A DNA stretch of 64,000 nt from Polytrichum commune (Eukaryota > Streptophyta > Polytrichopsida > Polytrichales > Polytrichaceae): the NCBI GenBank assembly GCA_950295325.1, contig OX485805.1:19083501-19147500 (forward strand), in the 5' to 3' direction. Each line of letters starts with the position of its first letter. Position 1 is the first letter of the stretch. A program made the translations under genes and the position numbers. Shown one piece after another: positions 20,031 to 62,560 of this stretch. The notes beneath the pieces are model-generated. The model did no database searches and was not told the DNA's origin. It saw only the letters and a program-made list of their open reading frames with translations.

Positions 20031-20038
20031 TTCTCTAC

Positions 20039-20386
20039 CTCGGGGGGGGGGGGTAGTCATTGGTTGGAGTAGCAGTATACGTGCGAACAAATGATAGGGT
20101 ATTTTAAAAACATGGGGGCTAAAAATTATAAATGGACTTAAGAGTAATATAGGGTATAAAAAATGGCATTGGACATCTTTAAAGTACTATAGGGTATGGA
20201 ATAATAAGTAATTTGGAATTATAAGTAATGCAAGCCATTTTTCTATTAACCCAAAGTAGAAATTTACATAATGATAGCATGTGAAAAAAAGAAGAGAATT
20301 GAAAGTAATACCCCCCTATAAAATAGTGGTTGTTCGCACCTATATCCTTAACTTTTTAACACACTGCCCCCCCCCCCCCCCCCGAG
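20039..20386 (+). mobile_element. MITE-1 copy 1, hAT-like (8-bp duplication)
   Basis: The element runs CTC(G)n to (C)nGAG and is flanked by a perfect 8-bp repeat TTCTCTAC at 20031-20038 and 20387-20394. The terminal inverted repeats are CTC plus poly-G (12 G at the left end, 17 C at the right). A subterminal inverted motif, GTGCGAACAA, occurs near both ends. An 8-bp duplication is typical of hAT elements. At 348 bp with no frame it is non-autonomous. It is nearly identical to the copies at 38837-39175 (inverted) and 61883-62223. Confidence 0.9.
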
Positions 20387-21479
20387 TTCTCTACATGAGG
20401 ATCCCCCCCCCCCCAATAATCTTACACCTAAACCGCACATAGGCTAAAATCTCTTAATTGGTTGAGAATGGGTCACCTACCTTAGGCTACCTCTGGCCCC
20501 TTATGAGTTAGTTGATTCCACGCTCCAATTTTTTGCAAATACTAAGCTTAAGGTTGAGGCATCTATGACCAATAAAATAAGAGGGTTTGCATCTATTTAA
20601 GAGGAGTAATAGCGGGAAATTTTTATTTCTTGCGGAGAGAAACAAATTAAAAGGAAAATGCAAAAATAAAATAAAATTCATGTATATGGAATTATTTAAA
20701 CAGTTTACAAATTTCAAAGCGGTAAAGTTAGGACAACACATAGTCGATCCATATGTTAACCCATAACCGCTCATCTAACTTCTAATGCTCGGCTACGATA
20801 ATTGTCAAAACTCTTATGAAGATAATCGATCACAAGCCGTTGCCACCACATAAACTTCAACTCAACTCACCTGCAACATATAAATCTCATCCATGTCGGC
20901 AGTCCATGACCATAGTGAACAATTGAATGGACCTGATCGACTATGGATGCCTCGACCTTATAAGCCCATGCCAATTGCCACAAACTCCAACACTCTTCGT
21001 TCTCTTCCCCCCAAAACCAAACGAGTTCGGACATGTGATCCGAGGCCCCATTGGTCCATGAAAGGAGGCACGCCACTTGTCACTAGCCCACAACCCCCCC
21101 CCCCCCCCAAACACCCACCCACAAAACGCCATAGTATAATCTATAATTAGCAAGAAGGAAGAAGGTATAGAGGAGAATGAGAGCGGTAACCTCCACGAAG
21201 CTCCCCTTTAAAACACACATCAACCTTCCCATGACTTAAGTTATTAAGACATAAAGGCATTTTGAACACAAGTGGGCGGCAGCTGGGTCACGGTTGTTGG
21301 CCCATTAAGTGAAAAAAATTAAGTGGTTTAATTGTTGTTTGTTGTGTGTGGATAGTGGGTGCATGTATGGGCTCACGTGGTGACACTACCCGAGGAATGT
21401 GGGTGCCGTTTGGTTCATTTCTCATGTTCTCCAACTTCTACCGATTAGATTTACATAACAAAACTCATGTTGCATTAGT
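20387..21479. other. Unassigned; poly-C tracts at 20403-20414 and 21094-21108
   Basis: A C12 and a C15 tract are present. Overlapping frames at 20893-21150 carry no motif. I see no supported gene. Confidence 0.4.
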
Positions 21480-21740
21480 AAATCTACTTCGAAGTATATA
21501 TGGAAACCGACCTCCCCTGATTTAGTTATGATTATTGGAAGTGCATGTTTGTCGATTTTTTGATTAGATACACATTTTCTTCATTGTTGCGTAGATTGTT
21601 AAGTGTTTAGGGGTGTAGTCGAATCTCTTTCAAACACGTGTCTTTATGATGTTTGCTCACCGAACCACATACCAATCAAATAAAGGGGTTCGATTACGAA
21701 AAACGAACTCAAGACCCATCTACCTTAAGTTATCTTCCAA
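21480..21740 (-). repeat. RepA copy, reverse orientation
   Basis: Blocks 'ttatgattattggaagtgca', 'tgtttgtcgatt', 'ttcaaacacgtgtctt' and 'accaatcaaataaaggggtt' follow RepA order. Confidence 0.6.
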
Positions 21741-21859
21741 TGACATGTTTCTTACATAAGGTGGGTGGGTCTTAAATGGTCATTTTTTCCGACAAGCCCA
21801 CTCTATGTTGCCCTCCGCATCATACACGACAAAAAATAAAATTGGTCATACAACTCTCA

Positions 21860-22230
21860 CTCAAATAGCGTCGATTGTTGTAGGATATGAAACATGCGAT
21901 TAAGTGACTATGAGATAGTTAGCAAATCCAAATCCTCTTTCCTCGTGATTGTTGGAGCTCATATGCTTATCTTGTTCACTATCAAAATGAAGAGTCTCAT
22001 GCTTATTAAATGGTCGTATAGGTATGAGAGAGTCGACATAAAGGTCTACATTACCCCCCCCCCCCCTTGTGTAAACTCTTGAGCCTAGAATGGTTATCAT
22101 ACTTTGAGCATGTAGTCCAATCTTTAAACACAAGTCTTTCTAGTATCTATTATTGGATCCGCACCTTACCACGTACCACTCAAGTACATGTGTCCAATTA
22201 AGATAGGTGACCGAATTAGGCACATCTACG
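21860..22230 (-). repeat. RepA copy, reverse orientation, with poly-C
   Basis: A long reverse RepA copy: 'taggatatgaaacatgcgat', 'gttagcaaatccaaatcctc', 'ttggagctcatatgctta', then a C tract near 22053-22068, then 'gtctttctagtatctatta' and 'gtgtccaattaagatagg'. The same order surrounds the two MITE-3 insertions at 54175-54945. Confidence 0.65.
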
Positions 22231-22560
22231 TTGAGGTTGGTGGTGCTAAAACCGACACCCCACCCAAATCAACACCCTACAATATTGCAAAATAAGTACG
22301 TATTGATCCTAAAAGTGTTCACCGTCTTAAACATCAGGCTATTGTCACGTTGGTTATGGATCCTCCATCAATGAAAGGTTGAACCCTTGTAATCTATGTT
22401 GCAATTGGGTGGTTGTTGGCATGTATTTGACTTGATTTTTGCATGTTGTGTGCGGATTGTAGACGTGTGTACGTACAGTTCATATGATGACACTAAGTAA
22501 GCTCCAATGGCCAACTTCTTATATAAGGTAGATGGTGCTAAAACCAACGTCCTTGAACAT
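22231..22560. repeat. RepA-associated 'gctaaaaccaac' segments
   Basis: 'ggtggtgctaaaaccgacac' and 'gtagatggtgctaaaaccaa' occur at both sides of this stretch, and related lines occur near 31200-31270, 52775-52850 and 58320-58400. They are probably the outer parts of long RepA elements. Confidence 0.45.
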
Positions 22561-23953
22561 GGTTGTAACAAATCCAAGCCTACATGTCATGAGCTCTCTA
22601 CTTGGAGCTTTTGGTGAGTAAATAAACTCATCTATCGAGAATGTTAAAATGCATTGTCTTATTCTATAATATCCTAGACAATTATATGTCTACAAAACAA
22701 GATTCCAAAGGAAATGGCATCAAATACCCCAAATCAACTAGTAAAGCCCATTTAAACATATACTACATGGGGCTTATTTTCACTAGAGCCCGACGGCTGA
22801 TTCTACCCACTTAGATGCCATGAAACCTAAGCCCGATGGTTATTCATGTCTAGAAATGGTAGTTTAACAAGTTGACTTCACATAGCATTGCTAAGCCCTA
22901 CTTGCAGTCACTCTAGGCATGAGAATACTACGGCCGATGACTGCGAATAAACATGTTGTAATTATTAAAACAAAAGGACAATCTAAGTCTAAGTGTCACA
23001 ACAAGGTCCCCATAAAACATGGCATCTCTTGTATACAGGATGGATGCACGAGCACAAGAATTAGGAATGCTATGGAACAATTCAAATTTCTACATAACAT
23101 TGCTTGTTTCGCCAACCACCGATGTTGTGAGCCAATGTAAATTAGGCAATGACATAGACCAACCACATTGGCGGGCTTAGTAGCACATAGCCTTTTCACA
23201 ACAATCATATGACTCTTGGGCAACTATTTCACGTCACTGGAAAATTGTCCGACCTCATCGGGGAAACCATAAACCTACCATAGTGTTCATTTGCCTTCTC
23301 TTTTTTTTACCAATGTAACCCAATTGCCTAGGACGCATATGATGGTAGTATTTCCACACAACCGTCAGTTTTGACTTGCCTTCCCATGCCTAGACCTAGC
23401 TCTCAATTTGGACAAAATTCAATATCTATGAACTAATGTAGGAACTAACTAGACATTATCATGGGTCCACAATCCCCTCTCATGCCTACTCAATAATGTT
23501 ATGTAAGGTAAGAATTCGCACTAAACCAACGCTACCAACATATGGGTCCTAGGCAATCACCATGATGCGATGGTGAGAGAAGCATGCAAAGTCATCCATG
23601 TGTGTAATATGATTTCCAAATGTTCCCGTGACGTTGGAGAATTTCTCAACGATGCAGGTCAATTTGCCCATGACTCATATGCTTGTAGTGCAATGTGCAT
23701 GCCTCATCAAATGTGGTACTATGCTTGGGCTCATGCATTCAAATTCGTTCCTTGTTTGCAATATATATAAATCTCGCAAATGTACTTAACTTGGAAGTTA
23801 GTAGCCCCCCCCCCCCCCATTCCGGTTGACATTGACAATATGAGAAATCTTGCAACAGCTTTTAGGAGGTCAACTGTTCTAACGAACATCTCGTAGTTTA
23901 CATATATTGGAATATGCATGAGTCTAGTAGCAAAGGATTTGTGGTTGTATAAG

Positions 23954-23955
<2 letters not shown>
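22561..23955. other. Unassigned; poly-C near 23804-23818
   Basis: No supported gene. Several 60-75 codon frames overlap on both strands without motifs. It matches none of the window's repeats as far as I can see. Confidence 0.4.

Positions 23956-24015
<60 letters not shown>
23956..24015. repeat. Compound (TA)n(GT)n microsatellite
   Basis: A TA run of about 28 bp passes directly into a GT run of about 32 bp. Confidence 0.95.
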
Positions 24016-24017
<2 letters not shown>

Positions 24018-24205
24018 GGTACTACTAGGTATATGATATACTATACGAGTAAGCATTGAACGACACCGTTTATGGTATTTAGTGTCACATATACTATTTG
24101 CGAAGTGCCTAAACTAGACACCTAGAGGTCTCAAAGTGTCATGTCCTCTAATTGCCAATATGGTATGATTCATCAACATAAGTAACTGTTACAAGTGAAA
24201 TTTTA

Positions 24206-24545
24206 TTTATATTACACTCTAACCTCTCAGATGTCATGCACATGGCCAACCAAAGTGCACGTGATGTTAAGGACACATGTGGTGTTAACATGGATGCATG
24301 ATAATAGAGAAACTGTGTAGCATGTGATAGTATGGAATAACACATAGTCAATAATGAAAACAATGACAATGTGATGTGTGTCGAGCATGTGGTTTGAATT
24401 CTTTGGTGGGCTATTTCAACGTCGAAACCCATGGTATACGGGGGATATGTGACAACAAGGAGGGAGATTTAAACTAAGCACATCCGTTCCCTAGGGTTTT
24501 CGGGATATAAGAGAGGGATTGACATTACGGAGGTTATGGTGTATG
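24206..24545 (+). mobile_element. RepD copy 2 nested in RepC
   Basis: The left end ACACTCTAACCTCTCAGATG and the reverse complement of the right end ACACCATAACCTCCGTAATG form imperfect terminal inverted repeats. The inner blocks 'accaaagtgcacgtgatgtt' and 'gttaacatggatgcatgata' match 47330-47690. It interrupts the RepC alignment, which identifies its boundaries. Confidence 0.6.
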
Positions 24546-24650
24546 ACAATATGAGTAGCATGTTTAGATACTTGAGATGATAGTTTTGCATTTTAGTATG
24601 CAAGGGGAAGGCGTTTATGGAGCATACTCATGGCAAATGTCATGTGTTCA

Positions 24651-25705
24651 GAGAGAGAGAAGAAACGCTGACCTCTGATGGGATCAGCATGATTGAAATG
24701 CCCGTTCGACCCACCCTTGATATTATGTCCACTTGACATAATATCAGTGGTGCAGGACTACTAACCCCTCTCGGGGTGGGCACTATGGTAACTGGGGTAA
24801 CCAAGTTGGCCATGCGTTGGTGCGGTTGTAGTGCTTGTAGGGGCAAAGGTTATCACTTTGTGGGGTGGATATTGAGTCATGGGCCTTCCATTAGCTTATT
24901 GTGATATCTTTTATTTATTGGTTGGCTAGTGTTTTAGGGAGTTCTTATGGTAGTTGTGTGTCAAGTGGTATTGACTCGTTATTTTCTATCCTTCTTTTGT
25001 GGAGAATTATGGACATAGCATGTTGTATAGCAATGACATTAATTGCCTCAAATGTGTTCTTGATGCTCTGCTTAGGGATTTTAAATGTTGTTTCAATGTT
25101 ATCCATAGAGGGGATATGTGTGGCAGCCCTAGCGCCTGTAGTGATGACAATTAGTGGGTCTATTTTCCAACCTTTGTTGGCAATATTGTCCATTAATGGT
25201 TTATATTTTTATATTTTACGGTTTATAGTTTCATCCGGTATTCTATCGTTACAGTATGTAAATTTAATGAATTGTATTGTTAGGTTGTCATTAGGTTCTA
25301 TTGGGGGTGAGGACTGATATGGTAGTCCTTTCACACATAAAAGATTTGGTTTGAATCTGGCATTACAATGGCATCTTTGTTGGCCACATACACACGGTAA
25401 TACCCATGAAGGGACCGTGTTTTCTGGGGGGTCATTATTGAATGTTCCTGCATTCATGAGTATATAACATCTTGGCTTTTTTGATGACACTATAAGTTTT
25501 CTTAATTCCCATACTGCTTTATTGTGTCTTTTGGTACGGAGGGCATGAATGTGGTGTTGTTTGCATTTTAGAAGTACATGCAGCCATGTATCCGGGTCTG
25601 TTGAGTCACATATGGGGCATGTAATTGATGGAAAAACTTCTCTTCCGAAGAACAACTATTTCCTGGCATTTCCCATGTATTGACCATGTCTTAGTTTTAG
25701 AAGAC
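24651..25705 (-). pseudogene. 5'-truncated non-LTR retrotransposon (LINE), reverse transcriptase protein C-terminus
   Basis: On the minus strand one frame runs from the 5' break at 25705 to a stop near 24945, with two in-frame stops (TAG near 25656-25658, TAA at 25209-25211). Just after the first stop it encodes a CCHC zinc knuckle: CPIC, nine residues, then H and four residues to C (within TCPICDSTDPDTWLHVLLKC). A Cys/His-rich stretch (PCVCGQQRCHC) follows, and then a 'PLIVITTGA' segment like the end domain downstream of the reverse transcriptase in many LINE proteins. No catalytic domain remains. The 3' untranslated region (24651-24944) has two perfect hairpins. The insert is flanked by a 14-bp duplication, ATGTCATGTGTTCA, at 24637-24650 and 25706-25719. 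The tail is not poly-A but a short TC-rich run. The homology is recognised from motifs, not from a search. Confidence 0.8.
24718..24777 (-). other. Two hairpins in the LINE 3' untranslated region
   Basis: Bases 24718-24729 (TGATATTATGTC) pair perfectly with 24735-24746 around a 5-nt loop. Shortly after, ACCCC TCTC GGGGT at 24764-24777 forms a second stem. In several LINE families the 3' hairpins are the recognition signal for the reverse transcriptase, so a role in template binding is a reasonable inference. Confidence 0.6.
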
Positions 25706-26052
25706 ATGTCATGTGTTCACATTCCAGTATGCAAGAAGAAGATAATCCCGAACACACTAATGCCAAGTGTCATTTGCGAAAAATCAACTTGTAAACCATT
25801 GTGTAACACAAGCATACACCTCATAACACAAATGAACATAATACTCATGCCAACAATGTATCAGTAAACGCACTTGAACGCCAAATATCATGAGGTGACA
25901 CTAATGATAAAGTATACATTTGGTGATGAGTGTGACTTAGCGTGTGCCTCAATATAGGGTACGTGACACTATTACGCATGTGATCCTAAATACCATAAAC
26001 GGTGTAGTAAGTGAGAGTTCTCGTGTGGCCTATTTTCCACTCATGGATATAA

Positions 26053-26446
26053 GAGCATCCTCAGTCGGTCTAGGTAAAGCTCACTGCAAACCAAAACCTA
26101 TCTTTTGACTTACCTAAAATTAGAAACTGAATTTACCATCATTAGAAGCGCACCTAAATAAACGTGAGATATTTCTCAAGAACAAAGAATTGTAAAAATT
26201 TGACGTAGGTGAAATCCCTCATTGAAAACACCACATTTTCAAAATTTAGAGGGAGTGCACCAAATCTTGCTTTAAATGGAAAGATCCTCCCACACTCCCT
26301 CCAAATTTTTGACATTTAGAGGGAGTGTGGGAGGATCTATCCATTTTTAAGCAAGATTTGGTGCACTCCCTCTAAATTTTGAGCAATTTTAAGCAAGATA
26401 GGTCTTGGTTTGCAGTGAGCTTTACCTAGACCGACTGAGGATGCTC
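26053..26446. mobile_element. MITE-5, PIF/Harbinger-like (TAA duplication)
   Basis: The terminal inverted repeats begin GAGCATCCTCAGTCGGTCTA and extend about 50 bp with a single visible difference. It is flanked by TAA at 26050-26052 and 26447-26449. A second, inner inverted repeat (the GAGGGAGTG block near 26240-26305 and 26315-26385) makes most of the 394 bp fold back on itself. GAGCATC-type ends with TWA duplications are known from plant PIF/Harbinger elements. There is no frame, so it is non-autonomous. Confidence 0.9.
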
Positions 26447-26449
26447 TAA

Positions 26450-27846
26450 GGGCTCAACATATATACGACAGTCCCAATGATATGAACATTTTTATATGAA
26501 CATTTTATTGAAGCAAACCTGCAGAGAGAATGATGATGATGATGTCCCTATGGGTACCACAAAGAGGAAACATTCCGTTACATTCCTGTATAACTTGCAA
26601 CCAATTTGTTTCCTTTTGCAACTGCCATATGATGGCCGTTTTACACACATGAGATATGAGATAAGGCATTCATTTATACTAAGGGTTGTGAGAAGAATAT
26701 GAGATAGGGTTTCTTGTGGCCATGGTCAAGGGTCTAAAGACCATGACCAAGAGAAATCCATGGTCGACAGTCTAAAGACCATGACCAGGAGAAATCCACA
26801 TCACTTTCAAAAAGCCTTGTTCAGATGACAGAGTGGAAAGTGGACTTAGACCATGACGTAGTTATTTTAATGAAGATCAAATAATAAAAATAAGGATACG
26901 ATCAACTAAATTGTTTTGGGAGTATCCCAATGTCCCCTTGTCCAGTGGGCATCGGGTCATTGGCATTACGAACGGACACTTTACTCACGCCGGCCCCTTG
27001 CTTGAAAGGGGTTGGAGTTTCTATCTATCTTTTGGGAGTAGACACTGTGTCCTGGTGAGACAACCTATTTGGGTTGTGTCACTGCGAAATCCGGGTGATC
27101 ACTAACCGTTACTAATTTTTGGATTTGTAGGATTCCATGTCACTTTCTCATTCATTTTCTAACATGGTCACTCTTTTCTTGGGTGCCTTGTGTACAAGGA
27201 AGAGACTCATACCACCATTCATTTTCTCAACCAATCAGAGAATTTAGAACGCGGTGGTGGTCATGGTCACGGGTCACTCGTGTAAATTGGCCCTAAGCAT
27301 GGGCATGCCTCTCATGCATCCGTGCTAAAATAAAATCATGCCTAAGGAGTTGGTTTGGGGGAGTTGGGGTGTAAAAATGAGGTGCATTATCATTGTAGGA
27401 GTTTTCATACCACACGTGTCATCACTATAACAGTCATTGTGTGGTCTTATCAACCTTTTTCTTCCATGAGGAAGGTTATAGAACTTATGAATGCAGATCT
27501 AGACTGCACCCTATTTGTGCATCATATAGTCACTCATTGGGAAAACAAATTGGATTGATTATGGTAAATAGCATGGGCACTTATAAGGTGCGATCCACCT
27601 TGGGTAACTTTGTAGTGTGGCATCATGATAATATACATCATCATGGTGGACAACAATGTGCAACCCAAGTTACACTTACACTTTGAGTTTTTTGAACCAC
27701 TCACCATGTTTCGTTCCTTCCCAATTTTGGTTATAAGCGGGGTATCCAATGAAAGCTATTGAGAATGTGAATCCAAAAAGCTTAATCTCGCTTTCTAAGG
27801 CCCAAAGTCGAAGAAGGGAAACATACAAAATTTGAGTTGACGTACA

Positions 27847-27848: not shown

Positions 27849-27894
<46 letters not shown>
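27849..27894. repeat. (CT)23 microsatellite
   Basis: Uninterrupted CT dinucleotide run. Confidence 0.95.
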
Positions 27895-27896
<2 letters not shown>

Positions 27897-38745: not shown

Positions 38746-38836
38746 GTATGGATGGTAACCAAAAAATTGGGTGTTTCATCCCAATTTGGAGCCGCTCCCA
38801 GACCAGACCTTGCCCTAAATTCGCATTGGATCTAAG

Positions 38837-39175
38837 TCGGGGGGGGGGGGGGCGCAGTGTGTTAAAAAGTTAAGGATATAGGTGCGAACAACCACTATTT
38901 TATAGGGGGGTATTACTTTCAATTTTTTTTTTCACATGCTATCATTATGTAAATTTCTACTTTGGGTTAATAGAAAAATGGCTTGCATTACTTATAATTC
39001 TAAATTACCTATTATTCCATACCCTATAGTACTTTAAAGATGTCCAGTGCCGTTTTTGATACCCTATATTACTCTTAAGTTCATTTATAATTTTTTGCCT
39101 CCATGTTTTTAAAATACCCTATCATTTGTTCGCACGTATATTGCTACTCCAACCAATGACTACCCCCCCCCCTGA
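38837..39175 (-). mobile_element. MITE-1 copy 2, hAT-like, inverted
   Basis: Flanked by the perfect 8-bp repeat GATCTAAG at 38829-38836 and 39176-39183. The end facing left has 14 G and 'gcgcagtg'; the right end has 10 C before TGA, so the element reads TC(R)G-run inward on both sides. It is collinear with copies 1 and 3 over its full 339 bp with only scattered substitutions. Confidence 0.9.
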
Positions 39176-39189
39176 GATCTAAGTTTTGG

Positions 39190-42117: not shown

Positions 42118-42790
42118 ACCTTTAACACTTTCACAAGATTATGATTTGTGACAACTGCACTAATTGCACATAGTATTGTGACCTCCTATAGTTTTGACAA
42201 ACCATGATAATTTGGTCAATGTAACTTTCTCGACCCACCATATCATAAGTTTAAATATAGTCATGTTGAATCAATGTTTCCTCTATGAATGTGAATTACA
42301 TTTGGTTGAGGAATACAACATCCATATCATACTAAAATATTTGATATTTTGATTAAAAATTTATCTCCCAAATAAATTTTTATAGGCCACCCTAAATCTC
42401 AACCCAGAGGATCCCACAGTAATTTCTACCAATGCTAACTTTTAGCCCACACTAATAGATGTAATGCGTGTAGCATGGGGGGTTTGTTGTAAAAGCATGC
42501 CCCTCCCAAGATTGCATGAATGAATTTGAAGATGGTTTGAATTACAAATTCTAGAGGTTGGAGGCAGTGTGTATGTTTGACAAATTTCATGTGATGTTCA
42601 ACCTCAAATCCAAAGTGTCACGTGACGTTTTCAAAAACAAAAATGAATGTCAATTGACATCTACATTTTATTCCAAAATGTCACCTCAATTTTTGGCTTA
42701 CACAATATTTTAGAAAACTAATATTTTGAATAATAAAAAACAAACTTGATTTGTAACAAAAAGAAACTATCAATCGAGCGTAAGTATCCT
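42118..42790. other. Unassigned sequence
   Basis: A 'cccacactaatag' patch near 42385-42470 belongs to the diverged repeat of 37225-37584. No gene. Confidence 0.4.
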
Positions 42791-43790
42791 TCAGTCTCGC
42801 ATGTTTCTCCAAATGTTGAAGATGGTAGCCCAATCCATTGCATCCACTTCAAGCCCACAAAGAGAAACCCGCATAAGGGCATCAAGGGTCTTCAAGTTCA
42901 ACCTATTGCGCAAGTGGCTTTTGATTGCATTTTGTTTGGAAGATCCTCTCTCACAAATAGCTATACTTGATGGAATGAGTATAATTTTTTTGTCAAAGTT
43001 GCATAAGTTTAGGCCAATTTGTGTGCCATTCCAAATTGCTACCACATATGCGCCAAGCCTCAAATATTGTTTTGTTCTCACACTCATGTCGAAGTGTTTC
43101 CGTAAATTCCAAGAGTTCCCCCTTACACATGTCACTCTCTTCTTCAGTGCACGGGTAGATCACTCTAAGGCATTTTTGTGCACCACGTGCGGCTGGGGGT
43201 TTATTGTTTTGGGGCTATTTACCTTCAAGGGTTGAATTTAAGCCTCCCTATAATTACTTAAATTTCAAAAATGGTCCATTTGTTTGCACCCTTCCATTAC
43301 TTATATTATCCAAGTCACTCCAATTTTTTGTACTCTATATTCCTTTTAACGACAACGCGTTCCCTTTTCATCCATTTTTGGACAGACGGAAATTCCAATT
43401 ATCATCCATCCCTGTGAGTCCTAAACCCATTTACATACCATACTAAACATACCTTCTAGGATCCTTATCTTCAGCCCCTATATTAATTTTACAAAAAAAT
43501 AATGGCCCACGTTTTATGTCCATCTAACTTACTTATAATGGGATTGTCTACATTTAATGGCCCCTTCATTATTTGGAATTCCTTTATAATTTTTATTTCA
43601 AATGATTTTAATCCTCTCTATATTATGCCGCACGTCGTTTTTAAAATGCACTAAGTGATCTACCCGTGCTTCAGTGTATTGAAACTTCAACAATATCCTT
43701 TCGAGCCACAATTCGGTATTTGTGATTCGGTCACTATCATTGCTTGGATAATTATGGACATAAACTCTCAAAGGTGATCAACATGGGTGA
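42791..43790 (-). pseudogene. hAT-type transposase C-terminus, interrupted by MITE-2
   Basis: On the minus strand the end of the frame reads 'ICERGSSKQNAIKSHLRNRL' then 'LDALMRVSLCG', matching the hAT dimerisation domain (CERG-type motif followed by the R-x-R-L and L-x-x-L-M/R-V/I pattern), and ends at a stop at 42791. Upstream, one frameshift falls in a run of T at about 42984-42990 (W-P-K-L-M-Q-L before it). The frame then reads 'EAWRICGSNLEWHTNWPKLM'. It is cut at 43142-43149 by MITE-2. After removing the MITE and one target copy, the frame continues without a break ('LKFQYTEESDM') to about 43780. The 5' part, with the BED finger and catalytic core, is absent, so it cannot be active. Family assignment is by motif recall. 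Confidence 0.75.
43150..43668. mobile_element. MITE-2 copy 1, hAT-like (8-bp duplication)
   Basis: The element begins CACGGGTAGATCACTCTAAG and the reverse complement of its right end begins CACGGGTAGATCACTTAGTG. The imperfect arms reach about 42 bp and end at a shared CACGTGCGGC or GACGTGCGGC. The flanks are a perfect 8-bp repeat, CTTCAGTG, at 43142-43149 and 43669-43676. It has 519 bp and no frame. It lies inside the hAT transposase pseudogene. Copy 2 is at 50663-51161 with about 95 percent visible identity and a small deletion. Confidence 0.92.
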
Positions 43791-45119
43791 CTCTCTTGCA
43801 CTGCAGAGTGGAGGCTTTTAGGCTCACAATTACGTATGCTCCTCCCTTTGCTTGATTCTAGTTGAATGTATCTATTTATCTATCTACCTATCTGCTGAAC
43901 AATCAATATCAACCGATATCCTCTTGAAGCATATTATATCCTTTAGTGGTAACGAAAAAGAATAAAAAGTTGTTCAATTGGTGAGGTTTGATCTAGGTCT
44001 CTGAACTGGAATTGTGAAATATAGAAACACTTCTAGTGCGCTGGCCAACAAAAGGTTGTTACAAGAAGGAATATTGATTATCATTGGGAATTAATTGGTT
44101 CCAGGTGTTTCCAGAGAGGCAGGGGAAGTGGAAAGCAACCACACAATCACAACTTCATAATTACAAGTTAATTATCCCAACAGAACAATTCACTCTGGAA
44201 CAAAGTGCGCTACAATCAATCCTAACCGAAAGCAAGCACTAATCTTCGTGCCACTTCTGCGTCATTTTTGCAATAAGAAGCCTCTCCAACTCCAAGAAAA
44301 CTCAAAGGGATTCAGATGCTTTCAACAAGGGAGCTTTGCGATTCAAAGGGAATTGCTCAAAACAACTTTGGTTGAAAGCAAGAAAAACTCACATTGGTTG
44401 GAAGCAAGAAAAAACTCATATGGAATGGAGGATGTGCAAGCACCACGGTGATACAAACATTTGCCTCGCCATGTTCCTAGTTAGTCTCGCTCTCCGATCA
44501 CCGTCTTAGCTCCCGGTTACAAAGGAAATTGCAAGAGCAAAGTTGAACTTAAGTATGTAAGTGAGTGTAGGAAGTTCTCCTACTGTTATGGGTTATGTTT
44601 TCCGGATACTTGAGCTGCACTTTATAGTACTCAAGTAATATGTGTCATTTCAATTTCTAGTGTGTCAATTGACGTGTGGTTTTTTTCTTCACAAGTCACA
44701 GTACGTGTCAATTTCTAGATTGTGCGTGTCAATTGACGTGCATTTTTTTTTTGTGCAAGTTTTTGCGTGTCAAAAGAGAAAAACTTGCAAAAACTTTGTC
44801 AAACATATACACTGGTTGGAGGACAACTGTGATAACTATACCTAAGTTGAACCTTTACCTAAAACCCACCTTAATACTTTCTTGCCTTGAAATGAACATG
44901 CATGGAATATAAGAGACTACTAAAGTCAATTTTGAACATGCCTACAACCGGCACATTGTACTTTATGTATAGTAATCTACCGCTTAAGTGTGCAAATTTT
45001 TTTCGACAAAAATCGTGGTTCATATTTTATTGTTTGAACATGTCATGTAAAGTCAGCTTCTGCAAATGCATGAAATTTTTACACTTGACATTCAATGTTA
45101 GTTTGTTAACGATTCACTG
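43791..45119. other. Unassigned; 63-bp imperfect tandem pair at 44642-44770
   Basis: Two units, each holding 'caatttctag' followed by 'gtgtcaattgacgtg' and a T run, lie at about 44642-44703 and 44705-44770. Frames at 44248-44451 and 44642-44912 lack motifs. No gene is supported. Confidence 0.4.
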
Positions 45120-50635: not shown

Positions 50636-51620
50636 GGCCACTTCACACACGAGACTGAGAGCCACGGGTAGATCACTCTAAGGCATTTTTGTGCACCACG
50701 TGCGGCTGGGGGTTTTTTTTGTTTTGGGGCTATTTACCTTCAAGGGCTGAATTAAAGCCTCCCTATAATTACTTAAATTTCAAAAATGGCCCATTTGTTT
50801 GCACCCTTCCATTACTTATATTGTCCAAGTCACTGCAAATTTTTGTACTATATATTCCTTTTAAGTAATTTTGGATAGACGGAAATCCCAATTATCATCC
50901 ATCCCCATGAGTCCTAAACCCATTTACATACCATACTAAACATACCTTCTAGGATCCTTATCTTCAGCCCCTATATTAATTTTACAAAAAAATAATGGCC
51001 CACATTTTATGCCCATCTAACTTACTTATAATGGGATTGTCTACATTTAATGGCCCCTTCATTATTTGGAATTCCTTTATAATTTTTATTTCAAATGATT
51101 TTAATCCTCTCTATATTATGCCGCACGTCGTTTTTAAAATGCACTAAGTGATCTACCCGTGCTGAGAGCCCGTGTTAATTGCACTTCAAGCACTCTCATT
51201 GGTGGAAAAGGCGGAGCCGGTCCAAGTTCGCTACTTCACAGTACGCTTGAGGGACCAATGGAGTATGTGAACGCAAGATGGATGTGAAGTCTACTTGGAT
51301 TCCTACATGGCATCTAAGAGATCATTTTTAATGGTCACTTGGATTATTTTCAAAAACCGTTTGGAGGTAGGCCTAATACAAAACCAAGAGACCATGGCCC
51401 ATGATGTTCTATTTTATCATGTGTGAGGACCCGCATGAATAGACATTCATTAAAATAGCATTTGGTTGAGGGCTCGGTCACATATGACTTCACACTACAC
51501 TTGACAGTTTGTGACCCACATTACATGATTATGGAGGTGTCTTGGGGCATCCTTTGGACACTTTCTTTTGGGCTCTCACAACTTCATGGTTACCGCTCTT
51601 GGCTCGTGTGTGAAGTGGCC
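50636..51620. mobile_element. RepE copy 2, carrying MITE-2
   Basis: The ends are GGCCACTTCACACACGAGAC on the left and the reverse complement of GGCCACTTCACACACGAGCC on the right. MITE-2 copy 2 with its duplication sits 19 bp inside the left end. Without it, the copy is about 478 bp and collinear in reverse with 48315-48815 ('accaagagaccatggc', 'gatggatgtgaagtctactt', 'ggaaaaggcggagccg'). Confidence 0.7.
50663..51161. mobile_element. MITE-2 copy 2, hAT-like (8-bp duplication)
   Basis: Flanked by the perfect 8-bp repeat CTGAGAGC at 50655-50662 and 51162-51169. Same orientation and arms as copy 1 (43150-43668). It differs by a 24-bp or so deletion near 50865 and by scattered substitutions. It interrupts the RepE terminal repeat, so it arrived after RepE. 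Confidence 0.92.
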
Positions 51621-55310: not shown

Positions 55311-55935
55311 GGCATGGTTGAGGGGGCATTTTTTTAAGACTCATTGTGCAAGGTTACTAGCTATATTTCAAAGGAGCCGTTGGGAGAAAGGTGTTGGTGG
55401 GCCTGACCTTCATCACATGTGTAGTGCTTTGTTTGATAATTTTTGTTTGGGTGCTGGATGGGTTGTGTTGATGTGTGGATTCGCAAGCCTTTCCACGATG
55501 CAGTGGGCAGGGTCGAAAGACCAAGGTGTAATTCCCATTTGGAATCATTCTTTTGCACATTGAATCTTCGATGCAGCCAAACTCTAATGCACCTTGGGTT
55601 GTATTTGCCACATTTACATCAACAACTTAGGAAGTAGGGGTCATATTTCAATTCTACATTGGCAAAACATAACCACATAACTCTCCCCAAACAAATTTTA
55701 TATCGCCACATACTCAGACCTTCTACAACATGTCACCATCCTGGACTGATGTGGACCCTCTAAAAGTGCCCAAGTAGATAGCCAACGCATGGGCCACGAG
55801 CCAACGAAGACACCCATTCTTCTTCTTCTTCTACTTCTTCTTCTTTAACAATCTCGTTGCCATGGGATGCCTTGGGACTCGGGAGGACGAAGAAGAAATC
55901 CTCAGCCCAAGATGGGGATGAGATTGTAGGAAGTG
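55311..55935. other. Unassigned sequence
   Basis: Overlapping frames on both strands at 55309-55637 show no motif. A TTC run lies near 55819-55845. No gene. Confidence 0.35.
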
Positions 55936-55942
55936 TAAGTTA

Positions 55943-56315
55943 GGGCCGGTTTACACTACGGTGGAGAAGTCCACCGGTCATGAAAAAGGGCGTTTCTCAA
56001 TTGTGATTGGTCGAAAATGCAACTCTTGACCGGTGGGTGTTTACACTAGGTGAAGAAAACAATGGTGGTGAACTTTTCTCATGGATGATAAAATGACATG
56101 GCCGCCTACATGGCGGCACTTTTTGGAGTTGGGCTTCTCCGGCCTCAAGAGGCCGGACAAGAAACTCCTCCTCCGGAGAAGCCCAACTCAATAAAAATAT
56201 TTTATTGTGCTTTAATTCTTCTCCGGCACATCCACCATTTGCCTCATATAACCATGTCTTGGCCAAGCATTCTTGACCGACCGGAGGCCTTCTCCACCGT
56301 AGTGTAAACCGGCCC
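55943..56315. mobile_element. MITE-4, nested palindromes, 7-bp duplication
   Basis: The terminal inverted repeats start GGGCCGGTTTACACTACGGT and are perfect over 28 bp. The flanks are TAAGTTA at 55936-55942 and 56316-56322. In the middle a second perfect palindrome pairs GAGTTGGGCTTCTCCGG with its complement, and inside that CCGGCCTC pairs with GAGGCCGG. The 7-bp duplication does not match the usual hAT (8) or Mutator (9) size. One base could be lost, so the superfamily is open. No frame. Confidence 0.85.
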
Positions 56316-56722
56316 TAAGTTAATATGAATGAATCCATCACTCTCCCAATCTCTTCCATGGAATCGGAGGACAGTCAGGCGGCTGATGGGGATTAATAAG
56401 ACTGTCCTTAAGTTAAGTCACATCTCCATCTCTCCATCTCTCCATCTCTCTCTCTCTCTCCCTCTCCCTCAAAATTCATCAACGATTTCTGACAATGGCT
56501 CAGCGATGCAATCTCCGGACTCCATCGCGATTTTAATGCCAGGCATTCAGTAATAACTTCGGATGAGTTAAGTTAGTGCTGAATGAAAGAGAAGAGAAGA
56601 GAGTGGCAGCTCATGAACATAATTATGATGTCCACTACACTAACGTAGTTATTATGCGGACCGTGTGTTTCGTATTCTCCAACTTCTACCGATAGTTGAA
56701 GGAAGGGAGTAAGGCACAGTGA
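56316..56722. other. Unassigned; CT-rich patch 56423-56470
   Basis: Imperfect CATCTCT and CT repeats. No gene. Confidence 0.4.
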
Positions 56723-56751
56723 TTTTTTTTTTTTTTGGGGGGGGGGGGGGG
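56723..56751. repeat. T14 followed by G15
   Basis: A homopolymer pair at the edge of RepB copy 7, similar to the T17G7 pair at 4425-4447. Confidence 0.9.
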
Positions 56752-56960
56752 TTTGGGCATAATCGGTTGAGATCCAAGTGTTTGCAAGTCCAACCGGTTA
56801 CATGTTGACATCCTCCGGGTTTCCTTGATTAAATCGGGGTATATTCTATAAATTCCTCTAAAACGATCGGTAATTTTCCTGCAGTCTTGAACTTCAACCG
56901 GTTATTTTTCAAACTCAATCCGTTCAATTTTAACCAACTGCCGGTTCTCGCTGATCATTG
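56752..56960 (+). repeat. RepB copy 7
   Basis: 'gggcataatcggttgagatc', 'caagtccaaccggttacatg', 'ggggtatattctataaattc', 'gtcttgaacttcaaccggtt'. This is the copy closest to the consensus in its left half. Confidence 0.7.
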
Positions 56961-57365
56961 GTGAGGAAAACCCATTTCCGATACCCGCCCCAATCATAAT
57001 ACAGGGTTCTCTAAAGCCGAGAGACGTTTCACAATTGTAGCCGTCATTTTGTAGTTTGGAATGTTGGAAGTAGATGGTGTCTAGGTGAGGGGCTGATCAC
57101 ACCCGCCGCTCATGGCATCCTCCGGCTGTAATAGTGTGGAAAAGTGGTGGGTCAACGCCTATTTGTCAACCAGGGCATGAGACAGAAGTCCTAGTTGTTG
57201 ACATGTGTAGTGTGATGAGAAAAAGTAAGCTACGAGGGCACGGATTTGGGTTCCCTGAAAAGGGTGATTAACTATGCTCAAGTTTTTAGTCTCTCAGTTG
57301 TTGGAAGTAGGTCGACCTATGTTGTGAATATGGGTTGAGAGAGAATCTCGCCTGTAAATATACTG
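56961..57365. other. Unassigned sequence
   Basis: 'caatcataatacaggg' near 56990 echoes the right flank of RepB copy 4. Nothing else is recognised. Confidence 0.35.
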
Positions 57366-57440
57366 AATGTGGGGAATATTTTGTTGAATATTGTCAGCCC
57401 CACAAAACATTGTTATGGATCTGAATAATGTTATGACTCT
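57366..57440 (+). repeat. RepL half element
   Basis: 'gaatgtggggaatatt', 'gttgaatattgtcagcccca' and 'acattgttatggatctgaat' match the right half of 60293-60440. The left half is absent. Confidence 0.55.
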
Positions 57441-58629
57441 CGACCAATACAATTGTTTGATTTTCTAGTTACTTAGGTCTTGGACCCTAGTGTAGACCAC
57501 CCTCATTATAGCTGGTAATTAGTCCTGCTTACCATGTTGATTCTGAACCCACCAAGAACTTAAAAATAAATAAATAAAACTAACAATATACAAAATCATA
57601 TAAGAAACAATATAAATACTATATTGTTACATTTTTATGTGGGAAATCGGTTATTATATCAATATAATATCATTACTTTCCATAGTAAATGTCAATATTC
57701 TTAATTAATGTGGACCTGCAGTATTCACAAACATTCACAACTAGCACATGGGTACTTGTATTAAGCGGTGTTATTATTAAAAAATAAATCTTAATTACAC
57801 AAAGACTTATAATTGTGGCCTAGACTACACTAAACTTATAATTTAGTGTGGCCCACACTATTCATCGTCATCTACTCATATTAATTGACTTGCAATGACT
57901 AGATGATAATTTTGGGGGCGTCATATGACACTTGGTGCTACAAGACAACTGTGACCACTTTAATGGACATCCTAAACTAGTTCTAATGTCACAATAAATC
58001 AGATGTTTAAAAAAGAAATTCATAAGTATTTATTATTGTGGGTCACATGATTTTCTTGAACATGGATGAATGTGAGTTTATATCATCATGAGCATGCATA
58101 AAATAATAAACTTGCGACAAGTGCAACATAAATTATGATAGAAGGGAGAGAAATTTTGATGAGTGACATGGATGGTGTGGTGGTTGGCATTAAGAGAATG
58201 TGCAACAAGGCTACACATCGATTTTAAAGAGTTTGACATCAATGTGAGCAAAGATATATATGTGGCACATCAATCCTAAGCCGCACTAAATGAACGTTAT
58301 AATGCATTTGGTAGCTAACTTGGTAGAGTATGCTAAAACCAACACCCTAAAAAAAATACCAACACCTTAATTTCTTGCAAAATAAGCACATGTTGATTAT
58401 GAAAATATTCACTACCTTAAGATCGTGCTCATGTGTTGGATTTGAGTGATTTTACTGATAAAACTTTGAACGCCTTATAACTTCTACATGTGGTATTCAC
58501 ATTAGACATACTTTGGTACGTTGGAATCCCCTGCTAGTTGCTACAAGAATCAAGAGAAAAGTTCTCAAACATAATAATATTGTCTTTGCTCAATGCTCAA
58601 GGGCTGGTTCTAGCACCATCTCTATGAAG
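57441..58629. other. Unassigned; RepI and RepA traces
   Basis: 57880-58010 weakly resembles RepI, and 58320-58440 carries 'gctaaaaccaacaccct' of the RepA surroundings. No gene. Confidence 0.4.
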
Positions 58630-59035
58630 ATAGACGTGTCTAATTCGGTTACTTGTCTTAATTGAACACCTATATTTAAGTGGTATGTGGTCAGGCATGA
58701 CTCTAAGAACAAATTTTAGAAAGACATGCGTTCAACAAACATGAACAATGTGCTCAAAAAATGATAACCATTCTAGCCTCAATAGTCAATATAATCTGAG
58801 TGGGGGGGGGGGGGGGGGGAGGGGAAGGATCTATATGACCACTTAATAAGCGTGCAAATCTTCACTTTGATGATTGATAGAGAACTCATAGGAGCTATGT
58901 TGATTATGAGGAAAGTGGCTACAGCCTCCATTTGGATTTGCCAATCATCTTGTACTAATTGTGTGTTTCATATCCTAGGAGAAGTGGGCCAGTTAGAAAA
59001 GTAACCATTTATGACCCATCATCTTCCTTAGACAT
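58630..59035 (+). repeat. RepA copy, forward, with G18 tract
   Basis: 'gtgtctaattcggttacttg', 'cacctatatttaagtggtat', 'agacatgcgttca', then a G18 run at 58802-58819, 'tatatgaccacttaataagc', 'tttcatatcctaggagaagt'. Confidence 0.65.
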
Positions 59036-59344
59036 GTTCCATTAGAGATGTAAAATTTCTTTGCAACTTTCACACATGTGATATTCAACTTAGAGAAACT
59101 CACACCATGTTTCAATCACAACAACTGGCACAAAGTCCAATTTCCTTGAAACCCCATGTGCGTATGGGATGCCTAGTATTATTTATCACTTGGGTTATGT
59201 GGATTTTAATGACCTTTGGTTTTTACAAACACAACCTTTTGGGTGGAGGTTCAAGGGTTAGAATGCCTACACTTGTAGTAGCTTTGAAGTGGAAGAATAT
59301 GTCAACAAGTTTATTCTTGACGACCTAAAGTCAAAGATGACTTA
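59036..59344. other. Unassigned sequence
   Basis: A 73-codon plus frame (59107-59328) has no motif. No gene. Confidence 0.35.
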
Positions 59345-59814
59345 TGTCCTTTTGTGGTGAACTTCAAAGTGTTCAACTATAACAATTTTAACCATTGTTT
59401 ATGAGCATGTTCTATACATGTGCATTTTAAAATTCAAATTTTGACACTAGGGTTGAACTGAACATTTTTTCCGCATTTGTAGTAGTAGTTGTGCCAAAAT
59501 AGGTGGAGGTGTAGGAAAAGAAAGAGGCGAGATAAAGTGAAGAAGAGGAGATAAATTACTCAACTACACATGGGCTAGATGTCCTTTTGTGGTGAACTCC
59601 GAAGTGCTCAACCATTAAAGTTACAACCACCATTTTGGGCATGTTCTATACACGTACATTTCAGATTTTAGATTTCGACACTAGGGTTGAACTGAACACG
59701 TTCTTCGCATTTGTAGTAGTTGTGTTGGAATAGGTGAAGGTGTAGGGATAGAAAGACGATAGGTAAAGTGACAAAGAGGAGATAAATCGCTTGTATGCAC
59801 ATGGGTTGGGACAA
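59345..59814 (+). repeat. Tandem duplication, two units of about 235 bp
   Basis: Unit 1 (59345-59579) and unit 2 (59580-59814) both run 'tgtccttttgtggtgaact', 'gcatgttctataca', 'gacactagggttgaactgaa', 'cgcatttgtagtagt', 'gaggagataaat', 'cacatggg'. Identity is roughly 85 percent by eye. There is no long frame. Confidence 0.85.
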
Positions 59815-60292
59815 CAAATACCAAGGGTTGACGAGGTGGTAAATATTACCCATCTTCAAATCCTACTCAAGGGCCTGGATTGATTAGTATAGTTTTATTT
59901 ACAGTCAAAAGTTTTCAAGAATATTTGATGGAAAAAAAACAATGATGTTGCTAGTTCCAACTATGTGGAAGGAGTTAGAAATTCACCTTGTACAACTTTT
60001 CTTTTGTATGGTAGTTCCAAAGCAAGCATTTAAAATAAATTACATTTTATGATACATCTTTGATTTGATTTGGAAATCCTCAATACTTTTAAACGGTCGT
60101 TTTCTCCTAATTTGTTTTCTTTTTCTTTGAGTTCATTTAGAGTAATAGCATAAAACATGATATTTTAGTATTATCACGAAAATGATTCTTCAAAGCAAAC
60201 ATGTAGGGGACAATTTTAACTAACCACCTCCCCTCACCCCAAATGGTACATGTCAATATTCAAATAAACAACTCATACATAGTCTCACATAA
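59815..60292. other. Unassigned sequence
   Basis: Nothing recognised. Confidence 0.35.
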
Positions 60293-60440
60293 TAATATTC
60301 AGATCCATAACAATGTTAATATGTGGGATTGTCAATATTCCAAACATATTCCCAAATATTCCCCACATTTGATTTTAATGTGAGAAATATTCTGTGGAAT
60401 ATTGTCAATCCCACATAACATTGTTATGGATATGAATAAT
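60293..60440. mobile_element. RepL, 148-bp fold-back element
   Basis: The left arm 'attcagatccataacaatgt' and on through 'gtgggattgtcaatattcca' pairs with the right arm 'tggaatattgtcaatcccac' through 'aacattgttatggatatgaa'. The arms extend about 65 bp with a short loop, so almost all of it can fold into one hairpin. A half copy is at 57366-57440. Confidence 0.75.
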
Positions 60441-61042
60441 GCTATATACTACCCAAATATGAATTAGTACATATTTGACAAAACAAATCATATATGTGAG
60501 TTGACGTGACGATGTCTAGAAATAACTCATCCTCCTTGAAACGGATCATTCATGTGTACAAGGGAACCTTGAGAGAACGACACTCGTATGAATGCTATAG
60601 ATTGAAATATCTTATCGATGGTGTCACATATTGCATTCCACTTTCCTCTTTTAAGTTAATTGTGATTTAATGTAGTTTGAGTCTCACCAAGTAAAATCTG
60701 ATTGTTACACTTGTGTGGGGCTTGTACAAACTATCACGTAGACCTTAAAAACTATATCCTTGCCTTAAGTTTTCATGCCCACATACCACTACCAACACGT
60801 GAGTCTACGGAATCATTTTGTGTCATTAGAAGAAATATGCAAATCTACCAGAATGATAGATTTGCGGTTTTTTCAAAGACATATGATAATTTTCTAGTGA
60901 CGCAAGTCAATTACCCATCCGTTTTTACTGTACCTTAGGATCATCCTTGTTCAATGTAATGACTCAAAACCATGTGTGATGTTGTAATTTGGACACTTAC
61001 TTGGATCCCCACCAAAGATGAGCCTGGAGGAGACAAAGTAAG
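60441..61042. other. Unassigned sequence
   Basis: A 78-codon frame (60702-60938) shows no motif. No gene. Confidence 0.35.
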
Positions 61043-61632
61043 GGTCACTTCACACACAAGACTGAAGGCACATGACCATTGTAATCTAAGAGCTCTCATT
61101 GGTCGAAAGGTTGGAGACCGTCCAAGTTCACTTCACACACGAAGGTGAAGGCCTAAAGGCCCAAAGAAGACTTCATGGATGAAAAGTCTACATAGAGTCC
61201 TACATGGCGAACTATGGATAAGGTTTCATGGTCTCCCAAAATTTCCTTTTGGCCCACCTCCAAGAGGTGGGCCTAACGCAAATTCTAGGAGACCATGATT
61301 TTTTTAAAATATTTTTTCCAGCAGGACTAATTTCAGGACAAATTGCAAGGTAGATTCCATATTAGATTCTTGGAAAGACAAACACCACCAAGTAATTCTC
61401 TTGTATTGATAGAGTTCGAGACATATTATATTAAACGAAATCCTTCCCTCTTTTCCCGCCAACAAAATATGCAATGGTCCCGCGACATGGTCCATTCTCA
61501 CTTCACACTATGCTTGAGGGCCCGTGACTACATAAAATGGCTTTCCCAACACCCATGGTACGGCCTTTGGATGAGAGCCAAGGGTCCTCACCATTACAAG
61601 GTCGCGGCTCTTGGCTCATATGTGAAGTTGCC
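61043..61632. mobile_element. RepE copy 3, with diverged centre
   Basis: The left end 'ggtcacttcacacacaagac' and the right end 'ggctcttggctcatatgtga' plus 'agttgcccc' match RepE ends. 'cattggtcgaaaggttggag' and 'cctccaagaggtgggcctaa' match the body. About 180 bp in the centre (61310-61490) have no match in the other copies except 39720-39800. Confidence 0.6.
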
Positions 61633-61882
61633 CCAAGTTAGCCATACAAGACTTGGTTTCAATTGTATTTTAATCTTTGAAATGAACCAAAGTTATTCAT
61701 AAAACCAAAAGGGGGTTTCCATCAGTTTGGTTTCATGTGAGAAGGAACTATCATGGCACGTAAAAAGTTGGGATGGTTGCCATTGAAGGTGAGAGAATAT
61801 CCCTTTACAAAGCGCCTCACCGGTGCACCAAATACTAACAAATCTAGCCTTGAAGACAACCTAATTTTCCGCACTTCTAAAC

Positions 61883-62223
61883 CTCAGGGGGGGTAGTCAT
61901 TGGTTGGAGTAGCAATATACGTGCGAACAAATGATAGGGTATTTTAAAAACATGGGCGCAAAAAATTATAATTGGACTTAAGAGTAATATAGGGTATAAA
62001 AAATGGCATTGGACATCTTTAAAGTACTATAGGGTATGGAATAATAGGTAATTTGGAATTATAAGTAATGCAAACCATTTTTCTATTAACCCAAAGTAGA
62101 AATTTATATAATGATAGCATGTGAAAAAAAGAAGAGAATTGAAAGTAATACCCCCCTATAAAATAGTGATTGTTTGCACCTATATGCTTAACTTTTTAAC
62201 ACACTGCCCCCCCCCCCCCCGAG
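61883..62223 (+). mobile_element. MITE-1 copy 3, hAT-like (8-bp duplication)
   Basis: Flanked by the perfect 8-bp repeat TTCTAAAC at 61875-61882 and 62224-62231. Left end CTCAGGGGGGG, right end 14 C then GAG. Same orientation as copy 1, 341 bp, with few substitutions. The left poly-G is the shortest of the three (7). Confidence 0.92.
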
Positions 62224-62560
62224 TTCTAAACTCAACATACTTTGGGGTGGGGTATATAGCTTTCGCTGGCCATACAATTGACTTGGTTCCAACTTTCAAT
62301 GCCACGGGGTTTCATGTTTTCGTGTTTTTGGACCCGTGTTGTCGTACGAATTCCGAGCTCCAACTTTCTTGGTGCTCCCCATGACTCGCTTTCATCTCAA
62401 ACTCACGCGGCTCAAAGATATTCGACAACTCCCGATGCCGGCCTACTTGCAACTTGTGATGATTTGGAGTTCTCTTTATATGGCCCTAAACGTACAATGT
62501 TAGGAAGACTTTTAAGTGTTTGTTGAGTGCCAAGAGGGAATTGATCATCACATACGTATG
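62224..62560 (+). other. Unassigned segment of mixed codon-like composition
   Basis: This stretch is richer in GC and more even in composition than its surroundings, and several overlapping frames are open (62121-62384, 62278-62526). I recognise no protein. It may be an exon fragment of a captured or dead gene, or chance. Confidence 0.25.

What the first reader, a model, noticed from the sequence alone, without database searches (positions are those of the whole stretch)
20031..62231. MITE-1: hAT-like element whose inverted ends are poly-G tracts
Three copies (20039-20386, 38837-39175, 61883-62223) each have a different perfect 8-bp duplication. The ends are CTC(A/G) followed by 7-17 G, with unequal lengths at the two ends (12, 10, 7 at one; 17, 14, 14 at the other). 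Terminal repeats made of a slippery, quadruplex-capable homopolymer are unusual. Subterminal GTGCGAACAA motifs near both ends could be the real transposase binding sites.
Basis: partly seen in the sequence, partly recalled or inferred. Interest (0 to 1): 0.7.

Follow-up and report, generated by a model that had tools for sequence, protein, structure and literature searches.

The report
Miniature transposon with poly-G ends
A small, abundant non-coding mobile element whose two tips contain runs of about 5 to 22 G bases, most likely because a short G-rich tip became pure enough to slip and grow during copying; related families in the same genome still carry the short tip.

Summary
The window lies in an unnamed 408-Mb assembly with 1203 exact matches to the left end. 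I measured 83 copies with both ends. 73 of 83 have a perfect 8-bp duplication directly abutting the tips, against 0 of 16,401 mismatched flank pairs. The G tracts lie inside the duplications: CTC-G(n). In 38 copies taken by position, n is 5-19 (left) and 7-19 (right), and the two ends are uncorrelated.

Three other MITE families in this genome have a related tip (CACGGG..TCACT) with ACGTG about 34 nt inside. Their G runs are mostly 3-4 (one tip has 6). In MITE-4 none of 40 tips exceeds 4. MITE-1 tract lengths match those of unrelated poly-G/C runs in the window and show no signal of descent or age.

Best reading: an ordinary cut-and-paste MITE whose G-rich tip crossed the slippage threshold, with subterminal repeats as probable transposase sites. 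hAT membership is not established: duplication size fits, but target preference and tip do not, and no partner transposase was found in the loci examined. Quadruplex function was not tested.

The parts
20031..20038 (.). Copy 1 left target-site duplication TTCTCTAC
20039..20386 (+). MITE-1 copy 1, 348 bp, CTC-G12 ... C17-GAG
20081..20090 (+). left subterminal motif GTGCGAACAA
20330..20339 (-). right subterminal motif GTGCGAACAA
20387..20394 (.). Copy 1 right duplication TTCTCTAC
38830..38837 (.). Copy 2 duplication ATCTAAGT (low-coordinate side)
38838..39176 (-). MITE-1 copy 2, inverted; one tip lacks two bases of CTC (a scan places the ends one base lower, 38837-39175, with TSD GATCTAAG)
38882..38891 (+). 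subterminal motif GTGCGAACAA
39126..39135 (-). subterminal motif GTGCGAACAA
39177..39184 (.). Copy 2 duplication ATCTAAGT (high-coordinate side)
61875..61882 (.). Copy 3 left duplication TTCTAAAC
61883..62223 (+). MITE-1 copy 3, 341 bp, CTCA-G7 ... C14-GAG
61921..61930 (+). subterminal motif GTGCGAACAA
62170..62179 (-). subterminal motif, here GTGCAAACAA
62224..62231 (.). Copy 3 right duplication TTCTAAAC
43150..43668 (+). MITE-2 copy (related family), tips CACGGGTAGATCACT, ACGTGCG 35/33 nt inside, TSD CTTCAGTG at 43142-43149 and 43669-43676
50663..51161 (+). MITE-2 copy (related family), TSD CTGAGAGC at 50655-50662 and 51162-51169

Best explanation
MITE-1 is a non-autonomous cut-and-paste DNA element of about 340-350 bp. 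It belongs to a set of MITEs in this genome with the tip C-W-C-GGG..., 8-bp duplications and a subterminal repeat of the type ACGTGCG facing inward at both ends. The transposase most likely binds the subterminal repeats and cuts at the CTC/CAC tip (inferred). In the related families the tip is CACGGGTAG(A/G)TCACT or CACGGGGAGGTCACT, with a G run of mostly 3-4 that does not grow. In MITE-1 the run is uninterrupted and long; one A-to-G change in CACGGGGAGGTCACT, for example, would give seven Gs (inferred route, not observed). It has therefore crossed the length at which replication slippage takes over, and now drifts at each copy and each end over 5-22 Gs, as other poly-G/C runs in this genome do. 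Shown: anatomy, TSDs, length spread, similar end architecture, short runs in related families, no signal of descent or age in length. Inferred: common origin of the families, binding role of the repeats, slippage as the cause, and that the active source carried about 6 or more Gs at both ends.
For: 1203 exact left-end matches genome-wide, reversed-pattern control 0. TSDs: 73 of 83 strict, control 0 of 16,401. Interior exactly 313 nt in 41 of 44 best-hit copies and 24 of 39 positional ones. Tracts in 38 positional copies: left 5-19, mean 11.1; right 7-19, mean 12.8; correlation -0.01. Runs of 7 or more (35 left, 38 right; 3 shorter left runs dropped) do not differ from the 22 other G/C runs of 7 or more in the window (KS p 0.86 left, 0.40 right). 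16 other runs of 10 or more in the window against 0.04 expected in simulated sequence. Nearest-neighbour test on 66 copies shows no inheritance of length (p 0.64 and 0.67); no correlation with divergence. The internal C6 run is 6 in 31 of 35 readable positional copies (3 unreadable; the others 5, 5, 7, 10). In an unrelated repeat family a short C run (TCCCCT) in two of nine aligned members is 13, 13 and 18 Cs in three others. Related families: in 12 of 12 distinct CACGGG..TCACT tip sequences ACGTG lies 33-36 nt from the tip; in 40 MITE-4 tips the G run never exceeds 4. In MITE-1 the motif lies 28+n nt from the tip, so n=6 gives 34. CTCG tips with short tracts: 15 with 6, none with 2-5.
Against: No autonomous partner found, so the enzyme is unknown. 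Slippage was not observed directly; assembly errors in homopolymers could widen the spread. The absence of CTCG tips with 2-5 Gs could equally reflect a functional minimum. In MITE-4 an exact ACGTG is at 33-36 nt in only 22 of 40 tips; it is absent in 16, at 38 in one and at 24 in one, so the spacing rule rests on fewer, partly related tips. The common origin rests on short similarities: interiors of MITE-1 and MITE-2 share only weak inverted matches (27 nt, E 4e-5; 59 nt, E 5e-4), and MITE-1 against MITE-3 or MITE-4 gives nothing below E 0.005. The 44 best-hit copies are biased towards the query's own lengths (12/17). The positional sample comes from one chromosome and requires an exact 25-mer with four Gs. 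The window is richer in poly-G/C runs than other fetched stretches (14 runs of 10 or more in 30 loci; 8 in 20 loci; MITE-1 ends included).
Confidence: 0.75

Rival explanations
1. The poly-G tract is a working part of the end: the transposase or a host factor needs a G run of at least about 6, perhaps as a spacer or quadruplex, and selection keeps it long in every mobile copy.
For: No CTCG-tipped copy with 2-5 Gs was found while 15 have 6 (exact anchors only). All 83 measured copies have tracts at both ends (shortest pure left run 5, in a CTCA-tipped copy; shortest right run 7). Tracts are rarely interrupted: left 4 of 44 and 4 of 38, including A at the first position; right 0 of 38 in the positional sample.
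Against: Families with a similar tip and TSD have transposed with G runs of 3-6. Lengths match non-mobile poly-G/C runs. Dispersion is already wide among the least diverged copies, so most length change looks post-insertional.
Confidence: 0.15
2. MITE-1 belongs to the hAT superfamily and is moved by one of this genome's hAT transposases. This can be true together with the best explanation.
For: 8-bp TSDs; subterminal repeats as in Hermes (PMC10368747, passages); 1060 first-look candidates for the hAT dimerisation domain in this genome, the 150 scored all over the cut-off.
Against: TSDs do not show nTnnnnAn: T2 26/81, A7 30/81. hAT domains whose ends were seen lie in elements with CAGAGCCC-type tips (13 of 30 loci) or a CCAGTG tip (L133/L134). 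No CTC-poly-G tip with the motif was found around the domain in 30 loci with 1.5-kb flanks, except one separate MITE-1 insertion (L053), nor in 12 further 3' flanks (L088 and L090 hold short CCCGTG or CCCCGAG words without the motif). This covers a small part of the hAT candidates.
Confidence: 0.5
3. The G runs are a target-site or assembly artefact: the element inserts next to poly-G, or the assembler made the runs.
For: The genome is rich in poly-G/C runs, and homopolymers are error-prone.
Against: In 82 of 83 copies the runs lie between a duplication of at least 7 of 8 bases and the conserved interior, with CTC or a close variant outside them in nearly all; 73 of 83 TSDs abut the tips exactly.
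Confidence: 0.03

Closest known systems
hAT-superfamily MITEs (for example mar in Drosophila, PMC3517528, seen in search listings with the start of the abstract only)
   Same: short non-coding element, short inverted ends, 8-bp TSD (partly recalled)
   Different: tip CTC-poly-G instead of a CAG-type tip (recalled consensus), no nTnnnnAn target preference, no partner transposase identified
Hermes (hAT) transposon ends (PMC10368747, passages read)
   Same: cleavage at the tip combined with subterminal repeats inside the end that bind the BED domain; 8-bp TSD
   Different: Hermes motif is AAGT with 17-bp TIRs; here the motif is GTGCGAACAA and its distance from the tip varies with the G tract
MITE-2, MITE-3 and MITE-4 of the same genome (described here)
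   Same: C-W-CGGG tip, 8-bp TSD, inward ACGTG-type motif about 34 nt inside
   Different: G run 3-6 and not expanding; interiors only weakly similar to MITE-1
Mononucleotide (poly-G/C) microsatellites of the same window
   Same: indistinguishable length distribution for runs of 7 or more
   Different: not tied to an element end

Membership tests
MITE (miniature inverted-repeat transposable element) | short, near-uniform length, non-coding | tested here: met
   313-nt interior in 41 of 44 and 24 of 39 copies, the rest 308-321 nt; no ORF of 120 aa or more overlaps the three window copies
MITE (miniature inverted-repeat transposable element) | inverted ends and target-site duplication | tested here: met
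   CTC-G(n) at both ends, 73 of 83 strict perfect 8-bp TSDs, control 0 of 16,401
MITE (miniature inverted-repeat transposable element) | high copy number | tested here: met
   1203 exact left-end matches
MITE (miniature inverted-repeat transposable element) | mobilised by an autonomous partner sharing its ends | tested here: inconclusive
   none found in the loci examined; the search was incomplete because the genome search was mostly unavailable
hAT superfamily | 8-bp target-site duplication | tested here: met
hAT superfamily | target preference nTnnnnAn (as stated for Hermes, PMC10368747) | tested here: not met
   T2 26/81, A7 30/81, both together 9/81; weak Y3 (55/81) and A6 (38/81) instead (81 perfect TSDs, L053 included). 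Other hAT groups may prefer other sites
hAT superfamily | tip of CAG type (recalled consensus) | tested here: not met
   tip CTCG in 38 of 44 left and 39 of 44 right ends
hAT superfamily | transposase with hAT C-terminal dimerisation domain between matching ends | tested here: inconclusive
   hAT domains abundant, none seen between such tips in the loci read
P, Merlin, Novosib, Zisupton/KDZ, MULE (recalled as having 8- or 8-9-bp TSDs) | matching transposase between the ends | not tested
   the KDZ search (PF18758) did not complete; the others were not searched

The most novel reading that the evidence does not exclude
A cut-and-paste transposase that tolerates a freely varying spacer: tip and binding site are separated by about 33 to 50 bp, much of it poly-G, different at the two ends and out of helical phase, so that a fast-evolving homopolymer serves as the terminal repeat of an element with over a thousand copies, possibly in a superfamily other than hAT.
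Probability: 0.2. Interest if true: 0.65.

Novelty: new variant of a known kind. Interest (0 to 1): 0.48.

Why it matters
Transposon ends are usually thought of as fixed sequences. Here over a thousand copies carry a tip that appears to mutate faster than the rest of the element, beside related families with a stable short tip. That allows a direct test of how much spacing between cleavage tip and binding repeat a transposase tolerates, and whether slippage at its own tip helps or kills an element. It is also a practical warning: TIR-based annotation may truncate or miss such elements because the end is low-complexity (inference).

Tried and rejected
Quadruplex as the explanation: not tested, only a DNA fold of copy 1 (z -3.2, expected for an element with complementary ends). 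Poly-G as insertion target: rejected by TSD positions. Inheritance of tract length through transposition: looked for, no signal. Younger copies having shorter tracts: not seen. Long-frame hAT family near C7:27950642 as partner: no matching tips in the stretches read, but its 3' end was not reached. The 420-aa hAT family (L133/L134): tip CCAGTGTTGG, not matching. The hAT remnant at 42565-44814 with CAGTG tips: not a partner by its ends. Viral contig scan for the right end: 0 matches. Pfam on ten long window ORFs: no match over cut-off. Two controls or comparisons of mine were invalid: the reversed-sequence control (reversal keeps TSD and TIR symmetry), and the blastn comparisons, which failed because of unsupported gap costs (found) and were redone there. 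Literature: bear on poly-G or G-rich ends and listed no MITE described so (listings only); two searches were about microsatellites and hAT targets; passages were read in PMC10368747 and PMC3942097.
Full report
Observation. Copies 1 and 3 have CTC-R-G(n) tips and perfect 8-bp duplications. Copy 2 is inverted, and one tip reads CGGG instead of CTCGGG, so its duplication can be read as ATCTAAGT or GATCTAAG. The G runs are 12/17, 10/14 and 7/14.

Genome-wide copies. The assembly (408 Mb, 64 contigs, no name given) holds 1203 exact matches to GGGGTAGTCATTGGTTGGAGTAGCA, reversed-pattern control 0. I fetched 39 regions chosen as best BLAST hits (41 copies) and 40 regions chosen by position (rows 1-20 and 41-60 of the first 100 listed matches, on contig 1). 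With the window's three copies, 44 copies and 39 copies (1 of 40 dropped because its right end was not reached) had both ends. Allowing boundary shifts, 43 of 44 and 37 of 39 have perfect duplications. With the strict rule that the duplication must abut the tip, 73 of 83 do, and mismatched flank pairs give 0 of 16,401. One copy (L097) has no recognisable duplication.

Tract lengths. In the positional sample (38 copies with a duplication of at least 7 of 8) the left run is 5-19 (mean 11.1) and the right 7-19 (mean 12.8), correlation -0.01. The best-hit sample has means 12.1 and 16.0, range 6-22, but is biased by the query. A pattern for CTCG tips with 2-6 Gs found 15 places, all of length 6 (one interrupted), none of 2-5; CTCA and other variant tips were not covered. 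Copies with more similar interiors do not have more similar tracts (66 copies), and tract length does not follow divergence. MITE tracts of 7 or more do not differ from the 22 other G/C runs of 7 or more in the window. The window has 16 other runs of 10 or more where a Markov model expects 0.04. In an unrelated old repeat family, three of nine aligned members have C tracts of 13, 13 and 18 where others have a short C/T stretch. Other fetched stretches have fewer runs (14 in 30 loci; 8 in 20 loci, both counts including MITE-1 ends), so the window is above average.

Related families. A duplication-plus-TIR scan of the window found MITE-2 (43150-43668, 50663-51161; tip CACGGGTAGATCACT). Two more families turned up in fetched loci. 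MITE-3 lies in L002 254-662, inserted with duplication TATAGGTG into a MITE-1 copy, and in L050 152-543. MITE-4 is L005 373-1239, with 20 of 44 matches read as loci L135-L154, the query itself among them. In 12 of 12 distinct tip sequences of this type ACGTG lies 33-36 nt from the tip. Within MITE-4 alone an exact ACGTG is at 33-36 nt in 22 of 40 tips, at 38 and 24 in one each, and absent in 16. In MITE-1 the corresponding motif (ACGTGCG on the left, AGGTGCG on the right) lies 28+n nt inside, so a tract of 6 would restore the common spacing. MITE-4 looks older (its listed matches are 84-91% identical to the query, apart from the query itself). 13 of its 20 copies have perfect duplications and 18 of 20 at least 7 of 8; mismatched flanks give 0 and 17 of 380 by the same rule. 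Its G run is 4 in 28 of 40 tips and shorter or mutated in the rest, never longer. MITE-3 in L050 has one tip with six Gs. By whole sequence the families are only weakly alike: the best MITE-1/MITE-2 match is 27 nt (E 4e-5), inverted, and MITE-1 against MITE-3 or MITE-4 gives nothing below E 0.005. A tip CACGGGGAGGTCACT is one A-to-G change away from seven Gs; that is my proposed route, not an observed event.

Mechanism. Shown: insertion with an 8-bp duplication, near-constant interior, variable G tract between tip and subterminal motif, and a similar motif at a similar place in other families. Inferred: the motif is the transposase binding site (by analogy with Hermes, whose BED domains bind subterminal repeats; PMC10368747, passages) and the tip is cut at CTC. 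Because the internal C6 run hardly changes (31 of 35 readable copies at 6) while every measured copy has long tracts at both ends, the active source probably already had about 6 or more Gs on both ends. Its exact lengths cannot be read back.

Superfamily. The duplication size fits hAT. The target preference nTnnnnAn is absent. hAT domains whose surrounding ends were seen lie in elements with CAGAGCCC-type tips (13 of 30 loci) or a CCAGTGTTGG tip. No CTC-poly-G end with the motif encloses a hAT domain in 30 loci with 1.5-kb flanks or in 12 further 3' flanks (where L088 and L090 hold short chance-like words). I therefore call it an unclassified 8-bp-TSD MITE that may be hAT. The window also holds a hAT-like remnant (42565-44814) with CAGTG tips, into which MITE-2 is nested. 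Its Dimer_Tnp_hAT match is under the cut-off (E 0.034) and not even the best Pfam hit (DUF4022, E 0.011, also under its cut-off).

Novelty. Six literature searches on G-rich or poly-G ends listed no MITE described that way; the library lacks most subscription papers and repeat databases were not available. I rate it a new variant of a known kind: an ordinary MITE with an unusual, slippage-driven end.

Noticed in passing
window 42565-44814: Degenerate hAT-like element with tips CAGTGTRTATGTTTGACAAA and duplication GTTGGAGG; a minus-strand frame 42791-43159 resembles the hAT dimerisation domain (below cut-off); MITE-2 is inserted in it.
   Followed up: partly
window 531-543, 22054-22066, 58802-58819: Poly-C tracts (13, 13, 18) at the same site of an old dispersed repeat family whose other aligned members have only a short C/T stretch there.
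   Followed up: partly
L050-L077 (around the PF05699 matches): In 13 of 30 loci the hAT dimerisation domain lies in an element of about 540-730 bp with CAGAGCCC-type tips and a perfect 8-bp duplication: apparently abundant non-autonomous hATs that keep a coding domain.
   Followed up: no
L131, L132 and relatives (C7:27950642 and others): Several long open frames (up to 1084 aa) that hold a hAT dimerisation domain followed by some 400 or more further residues.
   Followed up: partly
L002 254-662; L091 from 260: Nested insertions: MITE-3 inside a MITE-1 copy, and a MITE-2 left end inside another (right end not read).
   Followed up: partly
window 20138-20234 and MITE-2 interior: Weak inverted similarity between the interiors of MITE-1 and MITE-2 (27 nt, E 4e-5; 59 nt, E 5e-4), and repeated ATAGGGTAT words in MITE-1: possible further subterminal repeats.
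   Followed up: no
window 59344-59787 and 8941-9256: Two-copy tandem duplications with periods of 231 bp and 158 bp.
   Followed up: no
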